DNA from: Thomasclavelia spiroformis DSM 1552
GTDB lineage: Bacteria > Bacillota_I > Bacilli_A > Erysipelotrichales > Coprobacillaceae
Assembly: GCF_025149465.1 (NCBI RefSeq)
Contig: NZ_CP102275.1
Coordinates: 1,922,001-1,986,000 of the forward strand
Direction of reading: 5' to 3'
Length of the DNA stretch: 64,000 bases
Notes under the pieces: model-generated
What the model saw: only the letters and a program-made list of their open reading frames with translations
The model's database searches: none
What the model was told of the DNA's origin: nothing
Program-made: the position numbers and the translations under genes
Part shown: positions 8,704 to 15,450 of the stretch, piece after piece
Layout: every line of letters begins with the position of its first letter
How positions within the stretch are numbered: position 1 is the first letter of the stretch

Positions 8704-9135
8704 CATCCACTTTTGTAAAAATCCATATGGTAACAAAACTGGCGGACAAAATGGACAAACCTTATGTTCATCTTATTCTAGCAAAAATCCATATGGTAAC
8801 AAAACAGTTAGTTAAACAAAGTCCAACCGGTGGTAGTCTCATTCTAGCAAAAATCCATATGGTAACAAAACCTAAATTAGATATATTTAGTGATGAATTT
8901 CGTCTCATTCTAGCAAAAATCCATATGGTAACAAAACATACGCACCCATCACATTTATCAGTTTCAAGTCTCATTCTAGCAAAAATCCATATGGTAACAA
9001 AACGTATGCGATGATGCTAGGGTATACGGTAATGTCTCATTCTAGCAAAAATCCATATGGTAACAAAACAATAGGATATACATATTTTTTTCCATTCTGG
9101 TCTCATTCTAGCAAAAATCCATATGGTAACAAAAC
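8704..9135 (-). CRISPR. CRISPR array, seven 36-bp repeats and six 30-bp spacers
   Basis: Repeats occupy 8704-8739, 8770-8805, 8836-8871, 8902-8937, 8968-9003, 9034-9069 and 9100-9135; all six spacers are exactly 30 bases. Read on the minus strand, the repeat starts GTTTTGTTACCATATGG and ends GCTAGAATGAGAC, with the GTTTT start typical of type II systems. The five repeats nearest csn2 are identical. The repeat at 8770 has two changes and the one at 8704 has lost most of its first half, so old, decaying units are at the low-coordinate end and the leader is at 9136. crRNAs are therefore read on the minus strand, the same as the cas genes. Confidence 0.98.
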
Positions 9136-9183
9136 CTCAAATACATAATAGCATATATTTGAAAACTAATAAATCATAAAATT
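9136..9183 (-). promoter_or_regulatory. CRISPR leader with ATTTGAG leader-anchoring motif
   Basis: Only 48 bases separate the csn2 stop from the first repeat. On the minus strand the leader ends in ATTTGAG (9136-9142) directly against the repeat. This is the known leader-end motif of type II-A loci that directs Cas1-Cas2 to insert new spacers. A TATTAT-like -10 lies close by, but no good -35 is visible, so array transcription may depend on cas read-through or repeat-internal promoters. Confidence 0.75.
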
Positions 9184-10029
9184 TTAGTCTTTTAGTATAG
9201 ACATATCAATTTTAGTAATTCCATTATCAATAATTTTTTTCATTTTATCTTTAGCCTCCTGTACCGTGTATATTCCTTTGTCAATAAAATAGTTATAAAG
9301 CTGTTCTTCATCATTTAAATCTAAGACTATGTTATCAAACAAAATTATATCTTTTAGATTCAATTCTAAGTTGTATTTACAAAGTAAAACAATAACTATG
9401 CAATTATTCATATTTTTTAAAATTTCATTTATTTCTATTGTTAATTCAGGTATTTCTACAAGACAAACAACTATTTTTTGCTGCTTTTTAGCAATATAAT
9501 TAATCATTTTTAATTGAAAAATAATTAATTCATTATATGATAAATCATGTTCATTTGCTTGCTCTTCTTCATAACAAAACATAGGTGAGAGTATTTTTAA
9601 AAATTGTTTGGGTGTATATGTGATAAATTTAGATGTAATTAAATTATCATCCAATTCACTAGCAAAAGCTTCAAATAAGATATTGATTGAATTAATTGTG
9701 TCAATATATTGTTCATCCAACAACAACATCTCTAGATATGCTGATATTAATGATTTACTATTTAATTTTAAATCTATATCAATTGAATAATTATGATCCA
9801 CATAATAAAAAGAAACGTCTCTATTTTTTATTTTATTTTCATTTATTTCCAAACATACTTCACCAATATTTTCTTTACTGTATTCACTTAATTTTGAATT
9901 ATAAAAATATTCAAAAAGCATATTTTTGAATTGATACTTTTCTACAAAATTAAAACCTAAGCAATATTTAATCTTATCTATTTGTAATTGATATTTATAT
10001 ATTCCTTTTTTTATAACTAAATTTTTCAT
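9184..10029 (-). CDS. csn2: Csn2 family CRISPR adaptation protein (subtype II-A)
   Basis: Csn2 forms a ring-shaped DNA-end-binding tetramer needed for spacer acquisition in subtype II-A. At 281 residues this one is longer than the roughly 220-residue Csn2 of the streptococcal pyogenes type and shorter than the 320-350-residue long forms. The call rests on position (after cas2, before the array), length, and alternating helix/strand pattern with an acidic N-terminal half; sequence similarity to well-known Csn2 proteins is low by eye. It overlaps cas2 by four bases (ATGA). No nuclease motif is seen, as expected for the family. Confidence 0.82.
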   Translation of the reverse strand: MKNLVIKKGIYKYQLQIDKIKYCLGFNFVEKYQFKNMLFEYFYNSKLSEYSKENIGEVCLEINENKIKNRDVSFYYVDHNYSIDIDLKLNSKSLISAYLEMLLLDEQYIDTINSINILFEAFASELDDNLITSKFITYTPKQFLKILSPMFCYEEEQANEHDLSYNELIIFQLKMINYIAKKQQKIVVCLVEIPELTIEINEILKNMNNCIVIVLLCKYNLELNLKDIILFDNIVLDLNDEEQLYNYFIDKGIYTVQEAKDKMKKIIDNGITKIDMSILKD

Positions 10030-10349
10030 AGTTTAATAAATGACTCGCTATTAATTATTTTTTCTTGATTAGATTTACCACCTACAATTATTTCTATTTT
10101 AGAATATTGCTTTTCTGTAACCATAAGCAATCTAATTTGTCCATCATTGGGAACATTTTTTCTTAAAATTGAAACATGCTTAACTGCTGCATCACGATTA
10201 GGAAATATTTTACAATATACGGAATATTGCATCATCATATATCCATTTTTTATTAAATATTTTCTAAATCGACTGTAAACACGCTTTTCTTTTTTAGTAG
10301 TCATTGGTAAATCAAAAAATATTACTAATCTCATAAACTCATAAATCAT
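10026..10349 (-). CDS. cas2: CRISPR-associated endoribonuclease-fold protein Cas2
   Basis: Cas2 dimers bridge two Cas1 dimers in the spacer integration complex. The 107-residue product starts at the ATG ending at 10349, overlapping the cas1 stop by 11 bases; a longer open frame reaching 10433 lies inside cas1 and is not needed. The beta-alpha-beta ferredoxin core is clear: MRLVIFFDLPM with the conserved Asp after the first strand, then the YSRFRKYLIKNGYMMMQYSV block. Its length fits the family. Confidence 0.95.
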   Translation of the reverse strand: MIYEFMRLVIFFDLPMTTKKEKRVYSRFRKYLIKNGYMMMQYSVYCKIFPNRDAAVKHVSILRKNVPNDGQIRLLMVTEKQYSKIEIIVGGKSNQEKIINSESFIKL

Positions 10350-11232
10350 AAAAATCCAATTTAGGAAATATATAAGATAATTCACCAGTTTCAATTTCTT
10401 TAAAAATATTTTCAAGGTAAACATAAATTGCATTAGTGATAGTTTGTTTTCGGTTATCTATAATTACTTTTTTTAATATTAATTGAATAAGTTGTTCTCG
10501 ATGTTCTTGTTTAAATAAAATATCTTCAAGCATATGATTATAAACATAATTATCAACAATTGGTCTAAATACTTCTATAATATCATCACTTAAATTAAAC
10601 ATATTTTGTTTTCCTCTATGAAAAATCCCCATGTTAGGTAAATAACCTTTAGCTACAATAATTGATGTTATTAGTGAACGAAAAATACTGTAACCATAAT
10701 TTAATCCTGCATTAATCACATCATTTTCAAATCTAATAAAATCATCACCAAACAACTCTCTAAAATACATTTTCGCTGATAATCCTTCACGATTTGTTAT
10801 ATCATCTAATTCGACTTCATTCATAAATTGCATTAGTTTATCAATAACCAAAGAATTTTTATTATTATATTTTAAAACTTCTATTTGATTATAAATTTTT
10901 GCTTTAACTATTTTCTGATGAATTATTTGTTTTTTTGTATTATCCCAGTTTATTTGTTTATCAATATTACCACTTTGAGAAAAATGACCATTCATTGGAT
11001 ATATATAACTCTTAGGTAAATGATCAATTCCACACAAAATAGTACATACATTATTTTCAGTTAATTTGTTAATTAATGGAACACTTAAATTCGATTTATA
11101 ATTGTCTATTACTAATATTTGAATATCTGAGATTGGTAATAAAAGCTCATCATCTTTCCATTCAACTTTTAAATTATCTAAATATAATCTCAAACATTCA
11201 CATTTTTCAATATATATTATTCTATGACTCAT
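10339..11232 (-). CDS. cas1: CRISPR-associated integrase Cas1 (type II)
   Basis: Cas1 is the integrase that inserts spacers. The 297-residue protein has the metal-binding triad Glu149 (NREGLSA), His205 (IFHRGKQN) and Glu220 (DIIEVFRP), so it should be active. Length and the short N-terminal beta domain fit type II Cas1. It lies directly after the tracrRNA terminator on the minus strand. Its stop overlaps cas2. How it is transcribed past that terminator is open: incomplete termination or an unrecognised promoter would be needed. Confidence 0.97.
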   Translation of the reverse strand: MSHRIIYIEKCECLRLYLDNLKVEWKDDELLLPISDIQILVIDNYKSNLSVPLINKLTENNVCTILCGIDHLPKSYIYPMNGHFSQSGNIDKQINWDNTKKQIIHQKIVKAKIYNQIEVLKYNNKNSLVIDKLMQFMNEVELDDITNREGLSAKMYFRELFGDDFIRFENDVINAGLNYGYSIFRSLITSIIVAKGYLPNMGIFHRGKQNMFNLSDDIIEVFRPIVDNYVYNHMLEDILFKQEHREQLIQLILKKVIIDNRKQTITNAIYVYLENIFKEIETGELSYIFPKLDFYDL

Positions 11233-11241
11233 TTTATATAC

Positions 11242-11323
11242 AAAAAAAAGGCTCTAAAAAGAGCCGAATCCGGGATAAACCCTTGTTTTGTTAGGTCATA
11301 TAAATTTTTGCTAGAATATAACC
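11242..11323 (-). ncRNA. tracrRNA between cas9 and cas1
   Basis: On the minus strand this region starts with an anti-repeat. Fourteen bases (about 11304-11317) pair perfectly with the 3' half of the repeat and nine bases (11285-11293) with its first nine. Between them are a five-base paired block, two possible G-U pairs and a small asymmetric bulge (C opposite ACC). Downstream come a short GGG/CCC hairpin and a 6-bp stem GGCTCT/AGAGCC with a TTTT loop and eight T residues, which form the terminator. Predicted length is about 80 nt. It guides RNase III processing of crRNA and binds Cas9. Confidence 0.92.
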
Positions 11324-11329
11324 ATATTC

Positions 11330-11358
11330 ATTATATCCTATTTAAACTCTAATTTCAA
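11330..11358 (-). promoter_or_regulatory. tracrRNA promoter inside the cas9 3' end
   Basis: On the minus strand TTGAAA (11353-11358) and TATAAT (11330-11335) are 17 bases apart. The -35 box lies in the last codons of cas9 and the -10 box just after its stop. Transcription would start near 11323, a few bases before the anti-repeat. Confidence 0.82.
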
Positions 11359-14300
11359 CACATTATCTTTAACAATATATAGATTTCCTAATACATCAGT
11401 TGCAAATTTTTGAATCTTTCTACACGTTCCAATACTTACCATTAGTTGTTTTTTACAATAACAATAGATTGGTTTGACTTCAAATCTACCAGTAATATCA
11501 TTATTTGTTGCAGTAAATTTTAAGATTTCATAAGTTTTAGCATCATGATATAAAGTTTCACCATCACTTTCAGTTGATGAATCAAAAATTCTTTTTTGTC
11601 CATCCGCTTTCATAATACCAATTAATTCATCACGATGTACTGAACAAACAAAAATCCATTCATCAGCAATTTTTTTCAATTTTTTTTGTTCTCTATACCA
11701 GCTATGATCAATTATATATTTATCTTTTTTTGCATTATATGCTACATCCTTATAACGAACTGTTACAAATTTATATTTTCCTTCAGGCGATTGATAAAAA
11801 TCTGTACGATATGGACTTATCTGTTTAGTAATAACTTTTTTATTTACCGTACTGTATTTATGCGTGATTGATAAATGATTTCCTAATTTTTCTGAATAGA
11901 ATTTCATTGAATGAATAGTAGGTCCATTATTCTTTTTAGCATATTTTGTAATTGGACCAAACTCTTCATAATATAAAGCTAAAGGACTTGTTCCTTTTAA
12001 TTTATATAATCCCTCTTTAGTTACAATATAGCAATTTTTATCTGTTTTAAATTCATTAAAATGATTTAAAACAATTGCTTTTATTTTATCAAAAGTTTGT
12101 GGATCTTTATGATACATAATATATTTATCAGTATTATCATTAATAATGTCATTAATTAATGTATTTGCTGCATTTTCTTTAGGATCATAGATATTTTTAA
12201 TACGTTCTACTAACATATCTTGATTGTCTACATTACGCGTACTATATATAGTATCATCAGAAATTTTACGATTAGGTTTCGTGTCTATTTTATGTGATAC
12301 TTTAATCAATGGATACGTCATTTTCTCTTTTATCATTACGCCTCTAATATATTTATTTGATTCTTCATAAATATTTTTTAAATTTGAAACAAATGAAATA
12401 TATTTTTCATCTAAATAACTGTTATCCGGTAAGACATTAAATATCTCACCTGTTTCTTCATCATACATTTCATTAAAATCAACTTTCATTAAATATGAAT
12501 TTATTAAATTCATTTTCTTCAAAGATGCAACAATTAATGCATCAATAGCATGATGGAAATAATCCTCTTCACGATCTTTAATTAGACCTATTCTTTTTCT
12601 AAAAGTACTTGTTGCCTGTCCTTTTATAGTATGTACTTTTGTATTTATTTCATTATCTTTAAAATAGTGCACTAAAGTATTCATTACTGTTCTACATGCA
12701 TAGCTAGTATCTACTAAATTACGATTTATAAAATTTTGAACTACTTCATATCTAGTTATATCATCTTCACATAATAAGTATTCTTTCTTTTTTCTGTTTA
12801 AATTTTTATTATTTTGAATAAATACTTTATAAGTATTTAAGTTACCATTATGAAATTTTCCTTTTAAAAACGCTGATATTGGCGTTAGGTTACCTTTTTC
12901 TTGATTTTCATCATGTGTTGTCAACACCTTATTATTAAATGAATCATCTAAAGAAATCGAAATAGGAATAATATGATCTATTTCATATGCTTTTTCATCT
13001 TCGATTAATTCTTTTAAATTTATGTCTTGTAATGTATAGGCACTTTTAGCGTCTTGTTCAATATATAATCTTATTTTCATTTTTGTTTTAGCATTAATAT
13101 TTTCGGGATTATATCCTGCTTCTTTTAAAAAGTTATTTACCTCAGTATTTCTTTCTTCATAATTTTTTTGGTTATTTTTTATTCTTTTCTTTTGATCTTG
13201 AGTGTTTTTATCTCTAGTTGTTTCAATAACAATACTATCAAATTCACCATAAATACTTCTTAATTTATTTATTACTTTAAAAGTTTCACGATGCGCTCTT
13301 TTAGCAACTGGTGATAAAATTGCATTATCATCAGCGTATATTTGTCTTTGTCCTTTTAATGATACCCTATTTTTATCAAAAATATCTAATTGATGTAATA
13401 CTTGCATTTGATTCATTTCTGTTTTTAACATTTCATTATTAATCAAATTCAATGCTTTTAATGATAAAGAATGATATCCTGATACTCCTTTTATAGAAGC
13501 TAAATCATTTATAATTGATGTATCTAAGCTAGGTAGTACTTGTTTTAATTGGTCTGATCTTTCATCAATGCTCTTAATTTTTGTGTTAATATCCATAATC
13601 GTATCAACAATACTTTTATCATTTAACAAACTTTCTTGATTATAGTTTTTAAAGACTTTTAATACTTTTTTATATCCTTTAAATTCTGTAATTAATGGCT
13701 TTTCATTTTTATCAATTCTAAAACCACTTATTTCTGTAATTCCTACATCAATTAGTTTCAAAAGTTGTTTTACAGTAATACCACCTTTTTCGTTTACAAA
13801 ATCTATAATTTTTTGTTTTTCAGTACTAGATAATTTTTCACCATTTATTTTTAGATTATTCAAATCATTCAACAAATTAAATAATTCTGCACTATATGAT
13901 TGTTGTGGTGCCCTTAATTGGTCAGGGAAAACACTACATTTTCCTCTCATCATATCAATAAGATTAACATGTACTAATTCACCATTTTCCATTCGATAAC
14001 TACCATATGGTGTTGGTGATTTTTCACTTCCAGGACCTTGATCATAACGTCTACGTCTAGCTACAATTTCTTTTATTTTATCAATTGTTTCTTTTTCTAA
14101 ATCCTGATTTTCTAATATCTTACTTAATTCCTTTAAATAATCTTCGGTTTTAAAATTATTATTAATCCCCCTAATCTTTCCACTTTCTTCTAATCTAGCT
14201 AATTGAATTTCACAAATATATTTATCTTTTAATTCCAGTGCATTTTTAGATAAGATATTTTTTGTACTTTCTTCATCTTGAGTTTCATCTGCATTACTTT

Positions 14301-14655
14301 CTAAACAAGTTCCTCTATTTTTTGTAATATGTAAAATTGCAGTTGCTAATTCATAATTTGAAAGCTTATTCTTTAGACCTTTCTTTCTAATTTCATAGGG
14401 ATTATTTAAGGCCGTATATTGCTCATCAATTAATCCATTTCTTTCTAAAAGCTTTTTCATGTCTGCTATTCGATTTGTCTTTCTTCTTTTTAATCTTCTA
14501 GCTCCTCTTTTCGATCTTCTTTCTTCATTATTAATAGCAGTTCCTTCTTTAAATAATCGAACTCCATAATCAACAAATTCATTTTTATCAATATCAATAA
14601 CCCCATATCCAACAGAGGTTATTCCAATATCTAGACCTAATACCAATCGCCCCAT
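11338..14655 (-). CDS. cas9: compact type II-A Cas9 endonuclease
   Basis: RNA-guided DNA endonuclease of 1105 residues, in the size class of the S. thermophilus CRISPR1 and S. aureus enzymes rather than the 1368-residue pyogenes type. RuvC-I is GLDIGITSVG with Asp9; an Arg-rich bridge helix follows (about residues 46-72); RuvC-II is IVIE with Glu478; HNH has YEIDHIIPIS with His561, then the Asn pair in DDSFNNKVL; RuvC-III is HHAID with His702 and Asp705. All catalytic residues are present. The C-terminal 250 residues would read the PAM. Start: the ATG ending at 14655 lies nine bases after GGAG, while the open frame extends 11 codons further. It is the first gene of the CRISPR operon. Confidence 0.97.
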   Translation of the reverse strand: MGRLVLGLDIGITSVGYGVIDIDKNEFVDYGVRLFKEGTAINNEERRSKRGARRLKRRKTNRIADMKKLLERNGLIDEQYTALNNPYEIRKKGLKNKLSNYELATAILHITKNRGTCLESNADETQDEESTKNILSKNALELKDKYICEIQLARLEESGKIRGINNNFKTEDYLKELSKILENQDLEKETIDKIKEIVARRRRYDQGPGSEKSPTPYGSYRMENGELVHVNLIDMMRGKCSVFPDQLRAPQQSYSAELFNLLNDLNNLKINGEKLSSTEKQKIIDFVNEKGGITVKQLLKLIDVGITEISGFRIDKNEKPLITEFKGYKKVLKVFKNYNQESLLNDKSIVDTIMDINTKIKSIDERSDQLKQVLPSLDTSIINDLASIKGVSGYHSLSLKALNLINNEMLKTEMNQMQVLHQLDIFDKNRVSLKGQRQIYADDNAILSPVAKRAHRETFKVINKLRSIYGEFDSIVIETTRDKNTQDQKKRIKNNQKNYEERNTEVNNFLKEAGYNPENINAKTKMKIRLYIEQDAKSAYTLQDINLKELIEDEKAYEIDHIIPISISLDDSFNNKVLTTHDENQEKGNLTPISAFLKGKFHNGNLNTYKVFIQNNKNLNRKKKEYLLCEDDITRYEVVQNFINRNLVDTSYACRTVMNTLVHYFKDNEINTKVHTIKGQATSTFRKRIGLIKDREEDYFHHAIDALIVASLKKMNLINSYLMKVDFNEMYDEETGEIFNVLPDNSYLDEKYISFVSNLKNIYEESNKYIRGVMIKEKMTYPLIKVSHKIDTKPNRKISDDTIYSTRNVDNQDMLVERIKNIYDPKENAANTLINDIINDNTDKYIMYHKDPQTFDKIKAIVLNHFNEFKTDKNCYIVTKEGLYKLKGTSPLALYYEEFGPITKYAKKNNGPTIHSMKFYSEKLGNHLSITHKYSTVNKKVITKQISPYRTDFYQSPEGKYKFVTVRYKDVAYNAKKDKYIIDHSWYREQKKLKKIADEWIFVCSVHRDELIGIMKADGQKRIFDSSTESDGETLYHDAKTYEILKFTATNNDITGRFEVKPIYCYCKKQLMVSIGTCRKIQKFATDVLGNLYIVKDNVLKLEFK

Positions 14656-14891: not shown

Positions 14892-15450
14892 TTAAATATC
14901 TTTCCATAATAATGCTAAATGAATTGCTTTATGCCAATTAGTTAATAATTGATCTCTTTGTGTATTATCAATGACTGGTTTAAAGTTTTTATTTAATAGT
15001 CAGTTATTTTTTCTCTTTACTTTTCCAAAAATCAACTGCAAATCACGCTAAATAAATTACCATTAAAGCTCTTGGTTCAATAATTTTTTATTTTAAACCA
15101 TCTTCATTTAATTTATCAACCATTTTGGCCGTTCTTCGACACTGCCAGACAATAACATTATAAATTGGCTTACCTGTTTCTTTATTCCAAATTACCGTTG
15201 TTTAACGTTGATTAGTAATCCCAATTGCCACAAATTCATTCATTTTAGCATTACTTGCTTTAATTGCTTCACTAATCACTTCTAATTGTGTTTCCCAGAT
15301 TTTTATTGGGTCATGTTCAACCCAACTAGGTTTAAGAAATATCTGTGTGATTTCTTTTTGTGCTTTTGCTACAATCTTTCCATAATAATCAAAAATAATA
15401 CATCGACTACTGGTTGTTCCTTGATCTAACGCTATAATATACTTAAACAC
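14892..15450 (-). pseudogene. glpK: decayed glycerol kinase gene
   Basis: Intact GlpK is about 500 residues and phosphorylates glycerol. Here the first 82 codons read as a good GlpK N-terminus (ALDQGTTSSRCIIFD, then SWVEHDP and GITNQR), after which a TAA replaces the Glu codon expected in GITNQRETT. Beyond it the same frame continues with [24 protein letters not shown], shortened here to its recognisable ends [10 protein letters not shown] and IVWQCRRT, then meets further stops. The last part, near 14895-14985, reads as a GlpK C-terminus (FKPVIDN... ending LLWKDI and a stop). The roughly 300 central codons are gone. This is a pseudogene with nonsense changes and a large internal deletion. Confidence 0.88.

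What the first reader, a model, noticed from the sequence alone, without database searches (positions are those of the whole stretch)
8704..14655. Complete subtype II-A CRISPR-Cas locus with a compact Cas9
All parts can be read: Cas9 of 1105 residues with intact RuvC and HNH residues, tracrRNA, Cas1 with its triad, Cas2, Csn2, and an array. Compact Cas9 proteins with a tracrRNA between cas9 and cas1 resemble the S. thermophilus CRISPR1 group. Sequence around the PAM-reading domain looks divergent by eye, so the PAM may be new.
Basis: partly seen in the sequence, partly recalled or inferred. Interest (0 to 1): 0.62.

Follow-up and report, generated by a model that had tools for sequence, protein, structure and literature searches.

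The report
Ordinary type II-A CRISPR, compact Cas9
A gut bacterium of the genus Thomasclavelia carries a complete CRISPR immune system built around a small Cas9 related to the Staphylococcus aureus enzyme; it is one of a whole family of such systems in related gut bacteria, and its DNA-recognition motif is probably NNARR.

Summary
On the minus strand, window 8704-14655 holds cas9 (1105 aa, catalytic residues present), tracrRNA, cas1 (E149/H205/E220), cas2, csn2, an ATTTGAG leader end and 7 repeats with 6 spacers of 30 nt. It is a canonical subtype II-A locus, the only copy of this repeat in the 2.53 Mb chromosome. The genome belongs to the genus of Thomasclavelia cocleata.

The "S. thermophilus CRISPR1-like" reading is half right. 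By whole sequence the Cas9 is nearer SaCas9 (585 bits, 35% identity) than St1Cas9 (504 bits, 30%), in a family widespread in Erysipelotrichales (nearest 68%, Faecalibacillus intestinalis). But the residue aligned with SaCas9 R1015, which reads PAM base 3, is Q1070, as in St1Cas9 (Q1084).

I derived a purine PAM with A at position 3 (about NNARR) and tested it on protospacers of relatives sharing this Q: A in 5 of 6 unambiguous non-self spacers (p about 0.015). The window's own spacers match nothing I could search, so its PAM remains inferred.

Side findings: the tracrRNA promoter's -35 box lies in the last Leu-Lys codons of cas9 across the family; a sister strain's spacers target gokushoviruses.

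Verdict: new member of a known kind.

The parts
11338..14655 (-). cas9, 1105 aa, compact SaCas9-like
   Evidence: TIGR01865 E=1.7e-191; nearest solved structures SaCas9 then St1Cas9
11330..11358 (-). predicted tracrRNA promoter: -35 TTGAAA (Leu-Lys codons of the cas9 C-terminus), 17 nt, -10 TATAAT
   Evidence: best promoter-like site of the region, 11 of 12 matches; present at the same place in the orthologous loci
11243..11323 (-). tracrRNA (approximate ends): anti-repeat 11317-11286, short GGG/CCC hairpin, terminator stem 11265-11250 plus T run
   Evidence: cofold with repeat and unique anti-repeat; terminator scan; duplex kept through compensating changes in relatives
10339..11232 (-). cas1, 297 aa, E149/H205/E220
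   Evidence: TIGR03639 type II Cas1 3.8e-80; residues
10026..10334 (-). cas2, 102 aa
   Evidence: PF09827 7.3e-17 over the whole profile
9184..10029 (-). csn2, 281 aa, subfamily without a Pfam or NCBIfam model match
   Evidence: PADLOC Csn2 PDLC01599 1.6e-108
9136..9183 (-). leader, ending in ATTTGAG at the first repeat, with a TGNTANNAT extended -10-like box
8704..9135 (-). CRISPR array: 7 repeats of 36 nt (GTTTTGTTACCATATGGATTTTTGCTAGAATGAGAC, last copy degenerate), six 30-nt spacers
   Evidence: this repeat occurs nowhere else in the genome

Best explanation
A complete subtype II-A CRISPR-Cas locus. Cas1, Cas2 and Csn2, with Cas9, insert new spacers at the ATTTGAG leader end. The array transcript pairs with the tracrRNA over about 31 bp and is presumably cut by RNase III. 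Dual-RNA-loaded compact Cas9 then cuts DNA matching the spacer next to a purine-rich PAM of about NNARR. Shown here: the parts, their order, intact catalytic residues, the repeat:anti-repeat pairing and its conservation. Inferred: expression, activity and PAM. The stated confidence is for the II-A system as a whole; for the PAM being NNARR-like it is about 0.6.
For: Family assignments. Catalytic residues. Array and leader. tracrRNA duplex with compensating changes in divergent relatives: own anti-repeat -27.0 and -39.0 kcal/mol against means of -16.7 and -15.7 with other loci's anti-repeats for L062 and L064. PAM: SaCas9 R1015 = St1Cas9 Q1084 = window Q1070, and SaCas9 N985/N986/R991 = window N1051/N1052/R1057; SaCas9 readers from PMC6361995. 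Non-self protospacers of relatives with Q: TGA(A/G)A, CCANA, TCAGA, ATAAG, mixed TCAAG, ACATC, TATAT. A at position 3 in 5 of 6 unambiguous spacers, p=0.015. The one relative with R at this column that gave a protospacer has G at position 3 (L062_7 ATGCC).
Against: No protospacer for any of the window's six spacers. The PAM sample is seven spacers from Cas9s 54-56% identical to this one; one (TATAT) disagrees and one is mixed. The AlphaFold model is only moderate (pLDDT 70, pTM 0.37), so the residue mapping rests mainly on sequence. No expression data.
Confidence: 0.9

Rival explanations
1. Same II-A system, but the PAM is SaCas9-like (NNGRR) or a really new motif rather than NNARR.
For: PI residues N1051/N1052/R1057 match SaCas9; SaCas9 is the nearest characterised Cas9; one relative with Q gives TATAT.
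Against: The residue aligned with R1015 is Q, not R; relatives with Q mostly show A at position 3.
Confidence: 0.35
2. The locus is a complete-looking but silent or decaying system.
For: Only six spacers, none matched; Cas9 relatives in two genomes are broken (G001 has an in-frame TGA, VE202-01 is split); T. cocleata carries a spacer perfectly matching its own mnmE.
Against: Every window gene is open with catalytic residues; promoter, terminator and leader motifs are kept; only the leader-distal repeat end is degenerate.
Confidence: 0.15

Closest known systems
Staphylococcus aureus Cas9 type II-A system (SaCas9, PDB 5axw)
   Same: Nearest solved Cas9 by sequence (585 bits) and by fold search (ranks 1-9, 35% identity); same domain set; same residues at the readers of PAM bases 4-5
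   Different: About 35% identity; PAM-3 reader Q instead of R; about 20 extra residues in the PI domain; different repeat sequence
Streptococcus thermophilus CRISPR1 (St1Cas9, PDB 6m0w, 6rj9)
   Same: Q at the PAM-3 reader column; similar length (1121 aa); best PI-domain profile match
   Different: Lower whole-protein score (504 bits, 30% identity); Csn2 there about 350 aa (PMC3936727), here 281; different repeat
Faecalibacillus intestinalis and other Erysipelotrichales II-A loci (L051, L054, L058, L060, L066)
   Same: Cas9 52-68% identical, near-identical repeat, same tracrRNA and leader layout
   Different: R or Q at the PAM-3 reader differs between close members; I found no characterised member

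Membership tests
CRISPR-Cas subtype II-A | Cas9 with RuvC and HNH nuclease domains | tested here: met
CRISPR-Cas subtype II-A | cas9-cas1-cas2-csn2 operon (csn2 defines II-A, PMC3936727) | tested here: met
CRISPR-Cas subtype II-A | tracrRNA with anti-repeat complementary to the repeat | tested here: met
CRISPR-Cas subtype II-A | array in the direction of the cas operon, leader ending in ATTTGAG | tested here: met
CRISPR-Cas subtype II-A | active spacer acquisition and DNA interference | not testable with these tools
   needs experiment
St1Cas9 (CRISPR1) group in particular | closest characterised Cas9 is St1Cas9 | tested here: not met
   SaCas9 scores higher over the whole protein; St1Cas9 only for the PI-domain profile
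St1Cas9 (CRISPR1) group in particular | associated Csn2 of about 350 aa (Csn2b) | tested here: not met
   281 aa here; no match to any Pfam model

The most novel reading that the evidence does not exclude
Each repeat of this II-A array carries an extended -10-like box (TGCTAGAAT, 5 nt before the spacer), as the leader does (TGNTANNAT). crRNAs might therefore be transcribed from inside every repeat, as known for Neisseria type II-C arrays (own knowledge), which would make guide production partly independent of RNase III in a II-A system. Against it: promoter-like sites in this AT-rich stretch are at chance density, and repeat conservation is confounded by pairing with the tracrRNA.
Probability: 0.12. 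Interest if true: 0.45.

Novelty: new member of a known kind. Interest (0 to 1): 0.25.

Why it matters
As a finding it is ordinary: one more II-A locus in a well-populated family. Its use is practical. The Cas9 is small enough for viral delivery, and the family contains close pairs (L004 with Q, L006 with R at the PAM-3 column) that offer a natural test of how one residue switches the third PAM base between A and G.

Tried and rejected
Window spacers against phages and plasmids: only partial matches at chance E-values. Against IMG/VR with 19-21-mers: only spacer 1 matched, with 22-23 of 30 identical bases in an AT-rich stretch, rejected as chance. Against 43 family genomes: own array only. Single-sequence search of genome contigs and viral contigs with the Cas9 returned nothing; the alignment query did. 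A degenerate pattern for a triplet of related spacers in G001 found nothing in IMG/VR. I first counted the T. cocleata spacer L058_4 (AAACA) for the PAM and dropped it, and the G067 own-genome match L067_12, as self matches: the former lies in the host's own mnmE gene. L051_3 in G010 and L023_8 in G009 and G029 have 4-5 mismatches in RBS-like or low-complexity sequence: rejected. Papers: no PAM study of a Thomasclavelia or A. dolichus Cas9 found in the held library; supplements could not be read.

Full report
What is there. The minus strand of window 8704-14655 reads cas9, tracrRNA, cas1, cas2, csn2, leader and array, in that order and all in one direction. Cas9 (1105 aa) matches the Cas9 equivalog model at 1.7e-191 and Pfam HNH, RuvC, WED and PI domains above cut-off. 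Cas1 has E149, H205 and E220. Cas2 is best started at 10334, giving 102 aa. Csn2 (281 aa) has no Pfam or NCBIfam match but is a clear PADLOC Csn2 (1.6e-108); its length lies between the ~220 aa Csn2a and ~350 aa Csn2b of PMC3936727. The array has seven 36-nt repeats and six 30-nt spacers; the leader ends in ATTTGAG, the II-A leader-anchoring motif (own knowledge). No other copy of the repeat exists in the genome.

tracrRNA. Only one anti-repeat is present (score 20.4; best shuffled repeat 11.2). It pairs with the repeat over about 31 bp (about -33 kcal/mol), is followed by a short GGG/CCC hairpin and an intrinsic terminator, and the pairing is kept through compensating changes in relatives with divergent repeats. 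Its predicted promoter (TTGAAA-17-TATAAT, 11 of 12) overlaps the 3' end of cas9: the -35 box is the Leu-Lys codons of the C-terminal LKLEF. TTG-AAA stands at this place in the window and in 17 of 19 orthologues listed, although TTG makes up 4-44% of their leucine codons. Of the two others, L007 lacks it and for L050 it would lie outside the stretch printed.

Organism and relatives. The window is part of a 2,528,470-base single contig. The same kind of Cas9 is in 8 other genomes of the family and many of the order. The window's Cas9 is 68% identical to that of Faecalibacillus intestinalis and groups with it and with G001 (100/100), apart from T. cocleata at 56%, so the locus has probably moved between genera.

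Closest characterised Cas9. SaCas9 scores 585 bits and 35% identity, St1Cas9 504 bits and 30%, EvCas9 455 bits. For a profile of the PI domain St1Cas9 scores slightly higher than SaCas9 (121.5 against 108.6 bits). The AlphaFold model is moderate (pLDDT 70, pTM 0.37), so global TM-scores are low and I rely on sequence alignment and local secondary structure.

PAM. In an L-INS-i alignment SaCas9 R1015 (reads G at position 3, PMC6361995), St1Cas9 Q1084 and window Q1070 share a column, and SaCas9 N985/N986/R991 correspond to N1051/N1052/R1057. From this I expected A at position 3 and purines at 4-5, before reading the flanks of the relatives' protospacers. The window's own spacers match nothing. 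Spacers of relatives with Q at this column do: three in the VE202-01 array match gokushovirus capsid genes, others match a prophage tail gene (L065_3, TCAGA), a mobilisable element (L067_24, ATAAG) and two genome regions. Excluding self matches, position 3 is A in 5 of 6 unambiguous spacers (p=0.015; 0.039 if the mixed seventh counts as a miss). The only relative with R at the column that gave a protospacer has G there (one spacer). This supports NNARR moderately; the Cas9s compared are only 54-56% identical to the window's, so for the window it stays an inference.

Judgement. The interpretation as a complete compact II-A system is correct, the St1-group label is only partly right, and a new PAM is not shown. 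Nothing here lies outside known type II-A biology.

Noticed in passing
window 11330-11358 and the same place in orthologous loci (e.g. L051, L054, L058, L060): The tracrRNA promoter's -35 box TTGAAA is formed by the last Leu-Lys codons of cas9; the rarer TTG leucine codon is kept across the family, a coding/promoter overlap.
   Followed up: partly
L066 (VE202-01 array, spacers 1, 9, 10); targets L117-L125, L131-L139: Three spacers of one Thomasclavelia-group array match gokushovirus (Microviridae) major capsid genes with 1-3 mismatches, suggesting Erysipelotrichales hosts for some gut gokushoviruses.
   Followed up: partly
L058 spacer 4; L102 and L140:12744-14135: T. cocleata DSM 1551 carries a spacer that perfectly matches its own mnmE gene (flank AAACAATG): autoimmunity, an inactive system, a non-functional PAM or an anti-CRISPR.
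   Followed up: partly
window 8704-9135, each repeat: Every full repeat contains TGCTAGAAT, an extended -10-like box 5 nt before the spacer, also in most relatives; chance not excluded.
   Followed up: partly
L023 array: Three spacers in G001 are synonymous variants of one target coding for NDIEQRYLN, as if acquired from several phage variants; no target found.
   Followed up: partly
window 14900-15450: Apparent remains of a glycerol kinase gene (FGGY-like N-terminus MFKYIIALDQGTTSSRC, then broken) upstream of cas9.
   Followed up: no
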